This document shows positions 12,336 through 18,607 of a stretch of DNA of 64,000 nucleotides, piece after piece; within the stretch, counting starts at the first letter, position 1; every line of letters starts with the position of its first letter. The stretch is from positions 1 through 64,000 of the forward strand of contig NZ_JAKZFR010000004.1 in NCBI RefSeq assembly GCF_022808935.1. The letters run 5' to 3'. Made by a program: the position numbers and the translations under genes. Source of the DNA: Geothrix sp. SG200 (lineage in GTDB: Bacteria; Acidobacteriota; Holophagae; Holophagales; Holophagaceae). Below the pieces are notes generated by a model. The model made no database searches, was not told the origin of the DNA, and worked only from the letters and a program-made list of their open reading frames with translations.

Positions 12336-13610
12336 ATGACGCCCGCCCGCCTGCTCCGCCGCCTCGTGATGCTGGAGGAGGGCGAGGCCCCGGCTCTGGC
12401 CTGGTCCTCTCTGTATTTCTTCCTGCTGCTCTTCGGCTACTACCTGCTGCGGCCCGTGCGCGAGGCCATGGGCATCGCCCGGGGCGCGGACAAGCTGCCC
12501 TGGCTCATGACGGGCACCCTGCTGGCCATGGCCCTGGCGAACCCGGCCTTCGCGGCCCTGGTGTCGCGGCTGCCGCGCCGGCGCTTCATCCCCTGGGCCT
12601 ACCGCTTCTTCGCGCTGAACATGGCGGCCTTCTTCCTGGCCTTCCGCCTGCTGCCGGGCCACGGCGGCGCGGCGCTGGGCTACGCCTTCTACATCTGGCT
12701 CAGCGTCTTCAACCTCTTCGTCGTGTCCGTGTTCTGGGGCCTCATGTCCGACGTGTGGTCGGAGGGGCAAGGCAAGCGGCTCTTCGGGTTCATAGCCATG
12801 GGCGGGAGCCTGGGCGCCATCGCCGGCGCGGCGGTGACGGGGGCCCTGACGAAGGGCGCCGCCCTGGGCGGCCTCCAGGTGAAGGTGGATCCCCTCTCCC
12901 TCCTGCTGCTCTCCGCGCTGACGCTGGAACTGGCCGTGCAGTGCGTGAAGCGGCTGGCGGCGATCTTCGCCCTGGGCGATGTGGCCCACGGGGCGCGGGA
13001 GCCGGGGCCGGGCCTGCTGGCGGGCCTGCGCCTCATCGCCACCTCCCGCTACCTCCAGCTTATCTGCGCCTACATCCTGCTCTTCACCATCACGAGCACC
13101 TTCCTCTACCTCCAGCAGGGCGCCATCGTCGAGCGCACCTTCCACGGCACGGCGGCGCGCACGGCGGCCTTCGCCCGCATCGACCTCTGGGTGAACGTCC
13201 TCACCCTGGTCACCCAGGTGTTCTTCACGGGCCGCCTCATCACGGCCCTGGGCGTCCCCGTGGTGCTGTCCATCCTCCCGGTGCTGAGCCTGGCGGGCTT
13301 CGGCGCCCTGTGGGCCTGGCCCACCTTCGGGGTGATGGCGCTGTTCCAGGTGCTGCGCCGGGGCCTGCACTACGCCGTGGACCGTCCCGCCCGCGAGATC
13401 CTCTACATTCCGCTGGGCCCCGAGGAGCGCTACAAGTCGAAGCCCTTCATCGACACCTTCATCTACCGCGGCGGCGACCTCCTGGGCGTGTGGGCACCCA
13501 CGGCCTTCGCGGCTTTGGCGGTTCCGGTGGGCCTGGCCGCGGTGGGCTGCTCGGGTTTGTGGCTGGGCAGCAGCGTGGCGCTGGGTCGTCGTGTGAAGCA
13601 ATTTGATTGA
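12336..13610 (+). CDS. MFS / NTP-NDP exchanger-like membrane transporter
   Basis: This 424-residue integral membrane protein has about 11-12 hydrophobic helices. The opening ALAWSSLYFFLLLFGYYLLR followed by PVREAMG is typical of a bacterial branch related to ATP/ADP translocases (Tlc) found in free-living bacteria, where the transported substrate is not established. The conserved segment DRPAREILYIPLGPEERYKS near residue 348-367 is also family-specific. A GGAG ribosome-binding site precedes the ATG. The divergent spacer has a TATACT box at 12292-12297 that may serve as its -10 element. I do not claim nucleotide exchange. Confidence 0.8.
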   Translation: MTPARLLRRLVMLEEGEAPALAWSSLYFFLLLFGYYLLRPVREAMGIARGADKLPWLMTGTLLAMALANPAFAALVSRLPRRRFIPWAYRFFALNMAAFFLAFRLLPGHGGAALGYAFYIWLSVFNLFVVSVFWGLMSDVWSEGQGKRLFGFIAMGGSLGAIAGAAVTGALTKGAALGGLQVKVDPLSLLLLSALTLELAVQCVKRLAAIFALGDVAHGAREPGPGLLAGLRLIATSRYLQLICAYILLFTITSTFLYLQQGAIVERTFHGTAARTAAFARIDLWVNVLTLVTQVFFTGRLITALGVPVVLSILPVLSLAGFGALWAWPTFGVMALFQVLRRGLHYAVDRPAREILYIPLGPEERYKSKPFIDTFIYRGGDLLGVWAPTAFAALAVPVGLAAVGCSGLWLGSSVALGRRVKQFD

Positions 13611-13713
13611 CTTTCCGCCATCTTCCCAGATGATGTCGGACATGGTTCGAGTGTCTGGACAGTTCCCCGGTGCCTCGCGGGTCTCCGCGATGGGCGCGAA
13701 GGTGTCCAGCTTT

Positions 13714-13764
13714 ATGACCATCACCAACGGTACCATTACGCACCCGGACCACCGCGGCGCCTGA
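13714..13764 (+). CDS. thrL: putative thr operon leader peptide
   Basis: A 16-codon ORF begins Met-Thr-Ile-Thr-Asn-Gly-Thr-Ile-Thr and has 4 Thr and 2 Ile codons in its first nine, the composition of thr attenuation leaders such as E. coli thrL. A GAAGG ribosome-binding element sits 11 nt before the ATG. The same frame is open back to ATG 13630, so a longer 44-codon peptide is possible. It ends 22 nt before a terminator hairpin and 84 nt before thrA. Its last codons contain one side of a possible antiterminator helix (see the attenuator feature). Confidence 0.7.
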   Translation: MTITNGTITHPDHRGA

Positions 13765-13817
13765 CCTGACCCTTTCTTCAGATTCGGCCCCGCGCACCCC
13801 GCGGGGCTTTCTGTTTT
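13753..13817 (+). promoter_or_regulatory. thr attenuator: antiterminator and terminator
   Basis: The terminator is an 8-bp GC stem (13787-13794 with 13800-13807, 5-nt loop) followed by a T-rich run at 13808-13817. Its 5' arm can instead pair with 13753-13761 in the last leader codons: the segments 13753-13761 and 13786-13794 form 8 of 9 pairs with one mismatch. A ribosome stalled at the Thr/Ile codons (13717-13740) would leave 13753-13761 free and allow read-through; a ribosome reaching the stop codon would cover it and allow termination. Confidence 0.65.
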
Positions 13818-13848
13818 GATCCGACTGTATTGATCCGACGGAGCCCCC

Positions 13849-16332
13849 ATGCAGCCCACCCCCATCCGCGTCATGAAATTCGGCGGCACCAGCGTCGCCG
13901 GCGCCGCGCGGCTCCGCACCGTGGCGGACCTGGTGGGCGCCGCCCGGATCACCCACCGCGTCTGCGTCGTGGCCTCCGCCATGGCCGGAGTCACCAACCT
14001 CCTGGTGAATGAAGGCCGCGTGCCGGATCCCGCCGCCGCGGACCGGCTCATGGACAGCTTCCGGGCTCTCCACGCCGAGGTGGTGGAGGCCCTGACGGGA
14101 GAGCTGGGCCCGGGTGTCGCCGCGCTTCGCGCCGAACTGGACGAGCTGGAGGCCCTGGGCCGCCGCCTGCTCCACGGCATGGCCCTGCTGGAGGAGGGGC
14201 CGCCCTCGGTGCAGGCCCAGGTATCCAGCCTGGGCGAGCGGGCCTCCTGCGCCATTCTCGTGGCCCTCCTGGCGGCCCGCGGGCTGGAACCCATCTACCT
14301 CGATCCGGTGGCGCACGTGCGCGTGGAGGGCGATCCTCTCCAGGCCCGCCCCTGCCTGGCAGAGACGGAGGTGAGCTTCGCGGCCGTGAAGGCGGGGGAG
14401 GGCGGGCTCTGGGTGTTGCCGGGCTTCTTCGGCGGCGACGCGCAGGGACGCATCCTGTCCCTGGGCCGGGGCGGCTCGGACCACAGCGCGGCGCTGGCCT
14501 CCGCGGCCCTGGGGGCGGACCTGCTGGAGATCTGGACCGACGTGGTGGGCCTCTACAGCGCCGACCCCCGCCTGGTGCCCGAGGCCTTCCCCCTGCCGGA
14601 GGCCAGCTTCGAGGAGGCCATGGAGCTCTCCTTCTTCGGCGCCAAGGTGCTCCATCCCAAGACCATCCCCCCGGTGCGGGAGCAGGGCATCCCCGTGCGG
14701 GTGTGCAGCAGCTTCGATCCCGCCCACCCCGGCACCCTCATCCGGGCCTCGGTGCCGCCTCCGCCCAGCGGCGTGCGGGGCATCTCCTTCCTCCGCGGGC
14801 TGTCGGTGGTGAACCTCACGGGCCCGGGCATGCTGGGCGTGCCCGGCATCGCGGGCCGCGTGTTCGGCGCCCTGGCGCGCAAGGGCATCTCCGTGGTGCT
14901 CATCACCCAGAGTTCGTCCGAGCTGTCCATCTGCTTCGCCGTGCGCCAGGCGGACGGGCCCGGCGCCGTGGCGGCCATCCAGGAGGCCTTCCCCGCGGAG
15001 CTGGCGGCGGGCTTCCTGGACCCCCTGGACCTGCGCGACGGCCTCTCGGTCCTCAGCATCGTGGGCGACGGCATGCGCACCCGGGCCGGCGTGGCGGGCA
15101 CCTTCTTCGACGCCCTGGCGGAGGTGGGCTGCAACGTGGTGGCCATCGCCCAGGGTGCCAGCGAGCGCATCATCTCCGCGGTGGTGGAGGAGCGTGAGGC
15201 CGCCCGGGCCATGCCGCACATCCACCGGCGGTTCTTCCGGACCCAGGTGGTGGTGGACGTGCACCTCCTGGGGGCCGGCAACGTGGGGGGGAGCCTCCTG
15301 GGCCAGATCCAGCGGCAGCAGCGCAAGCTGGCGGAGCAGGGCCTGGACCTGCGGGTGGCGACCATCGCCACCAGCCGCCGCATGTGCCTGGACGCGAAGG
15401 GGCTCGACCTGTACCACTGGCGGGAGGACCTGGCCCAGGGCGAGCCCACGAACCTGGACCGCGTGATGTCCGTGGTCCGCAACGGACCGCCCTCCCTGTC
15501 CGTGCTGGTGGACTGCACCACCAGCGGCGACCTGGCGGCCCGGTATCCGGACCTCTTCGACGCGGGCTTCCATGTGGTGACCGCCAACAAGAAGGCCAAC
15601 AGCGCCTCCCAGGCGTTCTACCGCGAGCTGCGGGAGCGCTCGTCGCGGCGCGGCCTGCGCTTCCTCTACGAGGCCAACGTGGGCGCGGGCCTGCCCATCA
15701 TCGACACCGTGAAGAACCTGGTGCTCACGGGCGACCGCGTGCTGCGGGCCGAGGGCATCCTCTCGGGCTCCATGTCCTACATCCTGGGCCTCCTGGGGGA
15801 TGGCGTGCCGCTGTCCGAGGCCGTGCGCTCCGCCAAGGAGAGCGGCTTCACCGAGCCCGATCCCCGGGACGACCTCAGCGGCATGGACGTGGCGCGGAAG
15901 CTCCTCATCCTGGCCCGGGAGCTGGGCATGGAGCTGGAGCTGTCGGACGTGGTGGTGGAGGGTCTCCTGCCATCCTCCTTCGACGCCAGCGGCGACATCC
16001 CCACCTTCATGGCGCGGCTGCCAGAGCTGGACGCGCCCTTCCGGGACCGTCTGGCCGCTCTGAAGGCGGAGGGCAAGACCCTGCGCTACGTGGGTAGCCT
16101 TTCGGACAGCGGCTGTCGCGTCGGTCTCCTGCCGGTGGATGGCGAGCATCCCTTCATGGCCATCAAGGGCGGCGAGAACGCCCTGGCCCTGCTCACCGAG
16201 CGCTACCAGCCGCATCCCATGGTCATCCGGGGCTACGGCGCGGGCGCGGAAGTGACGGCCGCGGGCGTGCTGGCGGACGTGCTGCGCCTGGTGCCCGGCG
16301 GCGCCCGGCCCTCGCGACGGAGGCCCTCATGA
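13849..16332 (+). CDS. thrA: bifunctional aspartokinase / homoserine dehydrogenase
   Basis: The 827-residue fusion performs the first and third steps from aspartate to threonine. The N-terminal kinase starts with [15 protein letters not shown] and runs to about residue 300. Next come ACT-type regulatory repeats (about 310-460), where threonine would bind. The homoserine dehydrogenase part begins with the NAD(P) motif [15 protein letters not shown] near 472 and includes [28 protein letters not shown] and the [19 protein letters not shown] catalytic region. The length matches E. coli ThrA (about 820). It overlaps thrB by 4 nt. Expression probably depends on the upstream attenuator. Confidence 0.96.
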
Positions 16333-17342
16333 TGGATCTGGCCCCTTCCCGGGGCGGCATCACCGCCTTCGCGCCGGCCAGCATCGGCAACTTCGCCGCG
16401 GGCTTCGACCTGATGGGCGCGGCCCTCGCGCCCCTGGACGGCACCCTGCTGGGGGATCTGGTCCACGCCGCCCCCGCGGAGGCGTCCTCCTTTCAGCTGG
16501 AGGGCCCCTTCGCGGGCCTGCTGGCGGGGGAGGCCCGGCCGAACTTGGTCCAGCGGGCCGCGGAGCTCTTCCGCGAGGCCGCCGCGGCGAAGGGCCGGCC
16601 CGTGGGGCCCTTCGCCCTGCGCCTGGAGAAGCGCCTTCCCGTGGCCAGCGGCCTGGGGTCCAGCGCCAGCTCCATCGTGGCCACCCTGGCGGCCCTCCAG
16701 GCTCTCTGCGGCGATCCCCTCTCCGTGCCGGAACTGCTGGAGGTGGCGGGGCAGGCGGAGGGCTCCACCAGCGGCGGCGTCCACCTCGACAACGTCGCGC
16801 CCTCCCTGCTGGGTGGCCTCCAGCTGACCGTTCCGGGCCGGGACGGCGGGCCCGCGTCGCGGCGTCTGCCCTGGCCCACGGACCTGCTCCTCGTGGTGGC
16901 CCATCCCGACTACCAGCTGGCCACCGCCCGGAGCCGGGCCGCCCTGCCGGAGCGCCCGGCCTGGACCGACACCGTGGACTTCGCGGGCAACCTCGCGGGC
17001 TTCGTGCATGCCCTGCACACCGGCGACCGGGCCCTCCTGGCGCGCTGCCTCCGGGACCCGCTGGTGGAGACGCACCGCGCCCCCCTGGTGCCGGGCTTCC
17101 GGGCCGCCCAGGCGGGTGCCCTGGCCGCCGGGGCCCTGGGCTGTACCTTGTCGGGGTCGGGGCCCTCGATCTTCGCCGTGGTCGGGGACGACGCGGATGC
17201 CGACGTGGTCGCCGAGGCCCTCCAGCGGGGCTTCGCGCAGGCCGGCCTCGCCAGCCGGGCCTGGATCTGCGCCCTGGACCTGGAGGGCGCCCGCCTTCTC
17301 TCGCCCGTGCCCCGCCCCCTCTTCCTCGAGGCCCAGCCATGA
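16329..17342 (+). CDS. thrB: homoserine kinase
   Basis: The 337-residue protein is a GHMP-family kinase that phosphorylates homoserine before threonine synthase. It opens with [20 protein letters not shown], and the ATP-binding loop [12 protein letters not shown] is near residue 100; a glycine-rich [12 protein letters not shown] near 273 closes the site. It overlaps thrA by ATGA and thrC by 4 nt, so the three genes are translationally coupled. The ATG three bases later is an equally possible start. Confidence 0.96.
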
Positions 17343-18607
17343 AGCTCGCCAGCACCCGCAATGCTGCCATCCAAGCCACGTTCCTGGAGGCCGCCCACCA
17401 GGGCTTGGCCCCGGACGGCGGCCTCTTCGCCCCGGTCGGGATCCCCCGCTTCGCCGACGCGGCGGACCTGCTGAAGCTGGATTTCCAGGCGCGGTCCGTG
17501 GAGATCCTCCACCGCTTCCTGGGCGACGAGCTGTCCCGTCCCGAGGTGGAGGGCCTGGCCCGCGCCGCCTTCACCTTCCCCGCGCCCCTGGTGCCCGTGC
17601 GATCCGGCCTCTCGGCCCTGGAGCTCTTCCACGGGCCCACGCTGGCCTTCAAGGATTTCGGCGCCCGCTTCCTGGCCCGGGTGCTGGCCCTGGATACCGC
17701 CGCCAAGCCCCGCACGGTGCTCACGGCCACCTCCGGCGACACGGGCGCCGCCGTGGCCAGCGCCTTCCTCGGCGTGCCCGGCGTCCGCGCCGTGGTGCTC
17801 TACCCCGCGGGCCGCGTGTCGCCCCTGCAGGAGCGCCAGTTCGCCACCTGCGGCGGCAACGTGCTGGCCCTGGCGGTGGACGGCGCCTTCGACGACTGCC
17901 AGCGCCTGGTGAAGGGGGCCTTCGAGGATCCGGAGCTGGTGGCGGGGCTGGGGCTGACCTCGGCCAACAGCATCAACATCGCGCGCTTGCTGGCGCAGCT
18001 GCTGTACTACTACGAGGCCGCGGCCCAGGCGCAGGAGGGCGGACCCCTCGTGATAGCCGTCCCCAGCGGCAACTTCGGCAACCTCTACGCGGGGCTCCTG
18101 GCCCAGGCCACGGGCGCGCCCATCGCCCGCTTCGTGGTGGCCACCAACGCGAACCGGGTGGTGCCCGACTACCTCGACACGGGCGAGTACCGCCCACGGC
18201 CCTCCGTGGCCACGCTCTCCAACGCCATGGACGTGGGCGCCCCCAGCAACTGGGAGCGCATCCACGCGCTGTTCCGCGGCGATCACGGCGCCATGGCCGC
18301 TGCCCTGCGCTGGGGCAGCCGCACCGACGCGGAGACGCGGCAGACCGTCCTCGACCTCGACCGCGGCGGCTACCTGGCGGATCCTCACGGGGCCGTGGCC
18401 TGCGGCGTGCTCCAGGCCCAGCTGCGCGCGGGCGAGCAGGGCATCTTCCTGGCCACCGCGCACCCGGCGAAGTTCCGTGAGTCCCTGGAACCCACCCTGG
18501 GCCGGGAGATCCCGCTGCCGAAAGCCCTCGGCGACCTGCTGGACAAGCCCCTCCTTTGCGAGCCCCTGGCCGCGGACCAGGCGGCCCTCAAGCAGCGGCT
18601 GAGCTGA
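17339..18607 (+). CDS. thrC: threonine synthase
   Basis: This 422-residue PLP enzyme converts O-phosphohomoserine to threonine. The PLP lysine is K105 in HGPTLAFKDFGARF, followed by TATSGDTGAAVASAFLGV (phosphate and substrate loop) and the glycine-rich IAVPSGNFGNLYAG. The length is that of the shorter, E. coli-like class. It overlaps thrB by 4 nt and ends the thr operon; the following gene converges 18 nt later. Confidence 0.96.
   Translation: MKLASTRNAAIQATFLEAAHQGLAPDGGLFAPVGIPRFADAADLLKLDFQARSVEILHRFLGDELSRPEVEGLARAAFTFPAPLVPVRSGLSALELFHGPTLAFKDFGARFLARVLALDTAAKPRTVLTATSGDTGAAVASAFLGVPGVRAVVLYPAGRVSPLQERQFATCGGNVLALAVDGAFDDCQRLVKGAFEDPELVAGLGLTSANSINIARLLAQLLYYYEAAAQAQEGGPLVIAVPSGNFGNLYAGLLAQATGAPIARFVVATNANRVVPDYLDTGEYRPRPSVATLSNAMDVGAPSNWERIHALFRGDHGAMAAALRWGSRTDAETRQTVLDLDRGGYLADPHGAVACGVLQAQLRAGEQGIFLATAHPAKFRESLEPTLGREIPLPKALGDLLDKPLLCEPLAADQAALKQRLS

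What the first reader, a model, noticed from the sequence alone, without database searches (positions are those of the whole stretch)
13630..13850. Threonine/isoleucine attenuator with a short leader peptide before a fused thrA
Seen: an ORF at 13714-13764 begins Met-Thr-Ile-Thr-Asn-Gly-Thr-Ile-Thr; an 8-bp terminator with T-run lies at 13787-13817; and 13753-13761 can pair with 13786-13794 (8 of 9), excluding the terminator's 5' arm. Established: E. coli thr operon is attenuated by a Thr/Ile-rich leader peptide. Inference: Thr-tRNA or Ile-tRNA shortage stalls the ribosome and allows thrABC transcription. I am not aware of such a leader described in this kind of bacterium.
Basis: partly seen in the sequence, partly recalled or inferred. 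Interest (0 to 1): 0.75.

Follow-up and report, generated by a model that had tools for sequence, protein, structure and literature searches.

The report
Threonine attenuator with leaderless leader peptide
Just before its threonine-making genes this soil bacterium carries a short threonine-rich reading frame and an RNA on/off switch that should let the genes be read only when threonine runs short; the same layout is kept in about fifty related species, but in a phylum where such switches have hardly been described.

Summary
The window is Geothrix (Acidobacteriota, Holophagaceae); the operon is thrA(fused)-thrB-thrC. All 53 Holophagaceae loci with this fused thrA (36 Geothrix, 17 in other genera) have a Thr-rich short ORF and an intrinsic terminator just before thrA. 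In the 51 analysed in full, the leader end pairs with the terminator's 5' arm (mean z -3.0), and pairing is kept between genera while sequence changes (partner-swap permutation about 8e-4). The U-tract lies so close to thrA that no second promoter fits. In 51/51 loci TTGAC lies exactly 35 or 36 nt before an ATG opening a 34-48-codon frame, which puts the transcription start at or within 2 nt of the AUG (leaderless leader mRNA). Thr codons are universal; Ile is absent in 7. A Trp leader (WWW) with leaderless geometry precedes trpE in the same genome and 25 other Geothrix. Known kind (ribosome-mediated attenuation), new member in a phylum with almost no annotated examples. No expression data were available; the mechanism is inferred.

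The parts
13607..13612 (+). -35 element TTGACT; overlaps the stop codon of the upstream gene (12336-13610)
   Evidence: promoter-like, 9 of 12; shuffles mean 0.0; TTGAC present in 51/51 analysed loci at 35-36 nt before the leader ATG
13629..13634 (+). -10 element GATGAT (16-nt spacer), 7 nt before the leader ATG
   Evidence: in Geothrix G -13, A -12 and A -9 are invariant in 36/36 and T -8 is kept in 34/36
13642..13764 (+). leader ORF, 40 codons + TGA: MVRVSGQFPGASRVSAMGAKVSSFMTITNGTITHPDHRGA; predicted leaderless or within 2 nt of the 5' end
   Evidence: ATG at fixed promoter spacing, in-frame and open in 51/51, 13 distinct lengths all multiples of 3
13714..13740 (+). control codons M-T-I-T-N-G-T-I-T; Thr codons at 13717, 13723, 13732, 13738, Ile at 13720, 13735
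   Evidence: Thr OR 11.6 against ThrA, p 2e-129 (sequences related, so p is only indicative)
13753..13769 (+). antiterminator 5' strand (CGCGG, GCC, GA, CTGA), overlapping the last leader codons and the stop
   Evidence: dG -18.6, z -3.2; MFE hairpin pairing these regions in all 51 loci
13778..13794 (+). antiterminator 3' strand (TCAG, TT, GGC, CCGCG), shares the terminator 5' arm
13786..13808 (+). intrinsic terminator hairpin (5' arm 13786-13794, loop 13795-13799, 3' arm 13800-13808)
   Evidence: (dG -18.7, z -3.3; mean z -4.1 over 51 loci)
13808..13817 (+). U-tract of the terminator (TTTCTGTTTT)
13840..13843 (+). likely Shine-Dalgarno GGAG of thrA
   Evidence: read from the sequence
13849..16332 (+). 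thrA: bifunctional aspartate kinase / homoserine dehydrogenase I
   Evidence: NF006959, 964 bits, over cut-off
16329..17342 (+). thrB: homoserine kinase
   Evidence: TIGR00191, over cut-off
17339..18607 (+). thrC: threonine synthase
   Evidence: TIGR00260, over cut-off

Best explanation
A ribosome-mediated transcription attenuator of the thrABC operon, read from a leaderless leader mRNA. Transcription starts at or within about 2 nt of AUG 13642 (inferred from promoter spacing). A ribosome loads on the 5' AUG and follows RNA polymerase along the 40-codon leader (inferred). With enough charged tRNA-Thr it reaches the stop at 13762 and covers the leader end (13753-13761), so the terminator 13786-13808 forms and transcription ends near 13817. 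When charged tRNA-Thr (and to a lesser degree tRNA-Ile) is short, the ribosome stalls at the codons 13714-13740; the leader end and stop region are then free to pair with the terminator's 5' arm, and polymerase reads on into thrABC. Shown by sequence: the elements, their conservation, spacing and mutually exclusive pairing. Not shown: transcription start, translation, and the response to Thr.
For: Thr-rich ORF + terminator ahead of fused thrA in 36/36 Geothrix and 17/17 other Holophagaceae loci. -35 to ATG distance is 35 nt (42 loci) or 36 nt (9), all in frame and open. Frame kept despite 13 different lengths although the peptide itself evolves almost neutrally, dN/dS about 0.83-0.90, as expected for a leader acting in cis. 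Thr codons lie in frame 0 (256/918), not in frames 1/2 (60/867, 5/867). Stop-to-terminator spacing is 19-27 nt in all but the two g3 loci (34, 39), and the antiterminator segment starts 11-18 nt before the stop's end. Antiterminator hairpin is the MFE in 51/51, 50/51 with z < -1. Partner-swap permutation across eight groups of seven genera about 8e-4. With the ribosome placed on Thr codons the nascent RNA folds into the antiterminator; with it on the stop only the terminator forms. Stem to thrA ATG is only 20-23 nt in the shortest relatives, no room for a promoter.
Against: No RNA, ribosome-profiling or genetic data. Within Geothrix the antiterminator helix barely varies, so a column-by-column count gives no covariation, and RNAalifold on a family-wide MAFFT alignment found no consensus structure. 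At equilibrium, stalling on the first two Thr codons still predicts the terminator once the whole RNA is present, so the switch needs the antiterminator to form first, during transcription. Leaderless starts are not clearly common in 460 kb of this genome. An internal start at 13714 cannot be excluded in the window's own clade. Two g7 loci have little Thr (2-3) and weak pairing.
Confidence: 0.85

Rival explanations
1. Same attenuation mechanism, but the leader is translated from the internal ATG 13714, with an ordinary 5' UTR of about 70 nt.
For: ATG precedes the Thr run in the window and close relatives; a weak AAGG lies 11-14 nt upstream.
Against: No ATG at the corresponding place in L010-L012 (ATT) and several others. 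The ATG 35-36 nt from -35 is the only one shared by all 51 loci, and the frame between it and the Thr run is open with lengths in multiples of three.
Confidence: 0.08
2. The hairpin 13786-13808 is only the terminator of the upstream transporter gene and thrABC has its own promoter.
For: The upstream gene ends at 13610 on the same strand and many intergenic terminators are of this kind.
Against: Only about 31 nt separate the U-tract from thrA, and as little as 20 nt from stem to ATG in relatives. The only promoter-like site lies upstream of the leader. The structure follows fused thrA into genera and Geothrix species whose upstream gene differs.
Confidence: 0.03
3. The short ORF acts mainly on translation of thrA (coupling or reinitiation) or encodes a functional micropeptide.
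For: Leader genes in Acidobacteria show a distance peak attributed to reinitiation (PMC4833913); some leader peptides act in trans (PMC7298713).
Against: Leader stop to thrA is about 60-130 nt with a strong terminator between; the peptide evolves near-neutrally apart from Thr richness and frame.
Confidence: 0.04

Closest known systems
E. coli thrLABC attenuator (thrL leader peptide; Rfam Thr_leader)
   Same: Thr/Ile-rich leader ORF, alternative antiterminator/terminator, before thrA (fused AK-HSD I) thrB thrC.
   Different: Different phylum; no Rfam Thr_leader match even at E 10; control run has fewer Thr and sits after a 20-30-codon unconserved N-terminal part; predicted leaderless start.
Sinorhizobium meliloti trpL attenuator (leaderless leader ORF; PMC7298713)
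   Same: Leader transcript starts at the AUG; ribosome-dependent attenuation of an amino acid operon.
   Different: Trp, 14-aa peptide, Alphaproteobacteria. Closer in kind to the Trp leader noticed here upstream of Geothrix trpE.
Mycobacterial leaderless polycysteine short ORFs (Canestrari et al. 2020, cited in PMC9094748)
   Same: Leaderless short ORF rich in the sensed amino acid, regulating a downstream operon.
   Different: Cys, Actinomycetota; I did not read that paper itself.
Predicted but unassigned attenuators of Acidobacteria (Naville and Gautheret 2010, PMC2965389)
   Same: Premature terminators upstream of genes in this phylum.
   Different: That survey states almost none in Acidobacteria had an assigned function; the words threonine and thrA do not occur in its main text.

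Membership tests
Ribosome-mediated (leader-peptide) transcription attenuators of amino acid operons | Short ORF with repeated codons for the operon's end product just before an amino acid operon | tested here: met
Ribosome-mediated (leader-peptide) transcription attenuators of amino acid operons | Intrinsic terminator between leader ORF and first structural gene | tested here: met
Ribosome-mediated (leader-peptide) transcription attenuators of amino acid operons | Antiterminator that excludes the terminator and is masked by a ribosome at the leader stop | tested here: met
   (by folding and partner swap; within-genus column covariation uninformative)
Ribosome-mediated (leader-peptide) transcription attenuators of amino acid operons | Leader translated, and read-through rises on starvation for the amino acid | not testable with these tools
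   no expression data
Rfam Thr_leader (gammaproteobacterial thrL) | Match to the covariance model | tested here: not met
   no match even at E <= 10
Leaderless attenuator leaders (trpL of S. meliloti, mycobacterial Cys sORFs) | Transcript 5' end at the leader AUG | tested here: inconclusive
   -35 to AUG 35-36 nt in 51/51, -10 ends 7 nt before AUG in Geothrix, SD-like motif near AUG in only 8 of 51; start not mapped
T-box / riboswitch | Match to a known aptamer or T-box family | tested here: not met

The most novel reading that the evidence does not exclude
Acidobacteriota use leaderless leader-peptide attenuators as a general way to control amino acid operons (Thr and Trp seen here by sequence), with the 5'-AUG start kept at fixed promoter spacing because it loads a ribosome as soon as the RNA emerges and so couples it tightly to the polymerase.
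Probability: 0.4. Interest if true: 0.65.

Novelty: new member of a known kind. Interest (0 to 1): 0.5.

Why it matters
Leader-peptide attenuation was long documented mainly in Proteobacteria and Actinobacteria, and a 2010 survey found almost no attenuator in Acidobacteria with an assigned function (PMC2965389). A Thr attenuator kept through Holophagaceae, with a probable leaderless start and a Trp counterpart, extends the mechanism to this phylum and gives a simple natural test of whether leaderless initiation supports tight coupling of ribosome and polymerase.

Tried and rejected
Rfam search of the whole window (only tRNA-Val) and of 13580-13870 at E 10 (weak chance-level matches, mostly on the terminator). 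Column covariation within Geothrix (no signal because helices are nearly invariant) and RNAalifold on a cross-genus MAFFT alignment (no structure); replaced by per-locus folding and a partner-swap test. dN/dS of the leader: near neutral, so it does not itself prove coding; frame and length evidence was used instead. Enrichment of TTGAC 35-36 nt before other genes in 460 kb: no clear peak. Mechanical scan of 460 kb for other amino acid attenuators: nothing convincing, and it also missed the thr leader, so it is insensitive. Upstream of leuA, ilvB and hisG: no leader immediately before those genes; the starts of the his and ilv operons were not followed. A conserved protector hairpin (1:2) was not tested. 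The order-level search gave the same genomes as the family search.

Full report
WHAT IS THERE. The downstream genes are thrA (fused aspartate kinase/homoserine dehydrogenase I, NF006959, 964 bits), thrB and thrC, all above curated cut-offs. The closest ThrA orthologues with named records are Geothrix (G. fermentans, G. campi, G. paludis and others), so the window is Geothrix, Acidobacteriota.

CONSERVATION IN THE GENUS AND FAMILY. 36 of 47 Geothrix genomes have the fused thrA, and all 36 have a Thr-rich ORF ending in R-[G/S]-[A/T/V]-TGA, a near-identical terminator, and thrA shortly after. All 17 loci from six further genera of Holophagaceae also have a Thr-rich short ORF and a terminator, although the DNA is otherwise largely diverged. 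Outside the family, three loci of another Acidobacteriota family (f82: L085, L111, L112) have Thr-rich leaders (for example ...MTSTTTTPRASGGTGLA) with a TTGAC 36-39 nt before an ATG, whereas L086 and four loci of family f87 do not.

In 51 loci (36 Geothrix and 15 others; L082 is cut by a contig end, L084 lacks TTGAC) the -35 sequence TTGAC lies 35 nt (42 loci) or 36 nt (9 loci) before an ATG. In all 51 that ATG opens an uninterrupted frame of 34-48 codons that ends at the Thr-rich run and stop. The 13 different lengths are all multiples of three. In Geothrix the -10 element (GA[T/A][G/A]AT) ends 7 nt before the ATG, and SD-like motifs near it occur in only 8 of 51 loci. By ordinary sigma-70 geometry (established knowledge) the transcript starts at or within about 2 nt of the AUG, so the leader mRNA is probably leaderless. 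In the window this is ATG 13642, 40 codons. The transcription start itself was not measured. In 460 kb of this genome the same spacing is not clearly enriched before ordinary genes, so it looks like a feature of this element rather than of all genes.

THE SIGNAL. In codons -22 to -5 of 50 distinct leaders Thr makes up 27.9%, against 5.0% in the first part of the leader and 3.2% in ThrA. Asn, Met and Ile are also raised. Thr codons are in frame 0 (256 of 918) and scarce in the other frames (60 and 5 of 867). Every leader has Thr (2-8 in the last 22); Ile is absent from 7. Ile is mostly the rare codon ATT (46 ATT: 23 ATC, against 29: 314 in thrA). The peptide sequence itself evolves almost neutrally, as expected if only translation in cis matters. 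The p-values treat related sequences as independent and are indicative only.

THE SWITCH. The terminator is strong in all 51 loci (mean z -4.1), and a hairpin joining the leader end and stop region to the terminator's 5' arm is the minimum-energy fold of the pre-terminator RNA in all 51 (mean z -3.0; 50 below -1). In the window it comprises 13753-13757, 13759-13761, 13763-13764, 13766-13769 with 13778-13781, 13783-13784, 13786-13788, 13790-13794, at -18.6 kcal/mol against -18.7 for the terminator. It explains the conserved TGACCTGA...TTCAG around the stop. The inner stem changes between genera (CTGA/TCAG, GATC/GATC, TAGC/GCTA, GTCG/CGAC) with pairing kept (read). Swapping 3' partners between groups of genera weakens the fold, about 8 in 10,000 permutations doing as well. 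Inside Geothrix the helix is nearly invariant and says nothing by covariation. Placement fits stalling: in the window Thr codons begin 36, 30, 21 and 15 nt before the antiterminator segment, which itself runs up to the stop. With a ribosome on any Thr codon the nascent RNA made before the 3' arm folds as antiterminator, and with it on the stop as terminator. For the first two Thr codons equilibrium folding of the complete RNA still prefers the terminator, so the order of synthesis must matter.

ALTERNATIVES. A simple terminator of the upstream gene plus a private thrA promoter is unlikely: only 20-23 nt separate the stem from the thrA ATG in the shortest relatives, the only promoter-like site is before the leader, and no homologue of the upstream transporter-like gene was found beside the leader in the other genera or in several Geothrix loci (only 0.2-0.8 kb of upstream DNA was held for the other genera). 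An internal start at 13714 remains possible only for the window's close relatives. No Rfam family, including the gammaproteobacterial Thr leader, matches.

A SECOND LEADER. Upstream of trpE in the same genome is MTLSSLSLRQGSLHGAWWWRAGSDGSLCEA* with TTGACA 37 nt before the ATG and a terminator GCCCGACCATCCGGTCGGGCTTTTT. 26 of 30 Geothrix loci inspected, this one included, show the same Trp-rich leader and spacing (36-37 nt); in the other four my automatic pattern did not match, though TGGTGG is present. This makes a general use of leaderless leader-peptide attenuators in Geothrix plausible.

LITERATURE AND NOVELTY. Naville and Gautheret (PMC2965389) report that almost none of the attenuators predicted in Acidobacteria had associated functions and that leader peptides were then known from Proteobacteria and Actinobacteria, adding a His leader in bacilli. 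Leaderless attenuator leaders have precedents in S. meliloti trpL (PMC7298713) and mycobacterial Cys short ORFs (cited in PMC9094748). I found no paper describing a Thr leader in Acidobacteriota in the held library; subscription papers are not held, so this is not proof of novelty. It is a new member of a known kind, with an unusual leaderless design.

Noticed in passing
L119/L128 (G000 contig C1, about 1123.5 kb) and L129-L156 in other Geothrix: Trp-rich leader (..AWWWRAGSDGSLCEA) with TTGACA 36-37 nt before its ATG and a strong terminator, just upstream of a trpE-like gene; found in 26 of 30 Geothrix loci inspected. A second probable leaderless attenuator.
   Followed up: partly
L085, L111, L112 (genomes G365, G398, G401, another Acidobacteriota family): Thr-rich leaders and terminators before a fused thrA outside Holophagaceae, absent from family f87 and from L086; vertical descent or joint transfer with thrA not resolved.
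   Followed up: partly
Geothrix genomes G010, G020, G029, G032 and others: 11 of 47 Geothrix genomes, some of them near-complete or complete, lack the close fused thrA orthologue altogether; how they make threonine was not examined.
   Followed up: no
window 12336-13610: Gene upstream of the leader is a weak match to ATP/ADP (NTP/NDP) exchange transporters (Pfam TLC over its cut-off, TIGR00769 below cut-off), not expected in a free-living bacterium.
   Followed up: no
L121 about 1400-1500 (upstream of leuA): Inverted repeat GGGAGGATC..GATCCCTCC between an AT-rich stretch and leuA; no amino acid leader seen.
   Followed up: no
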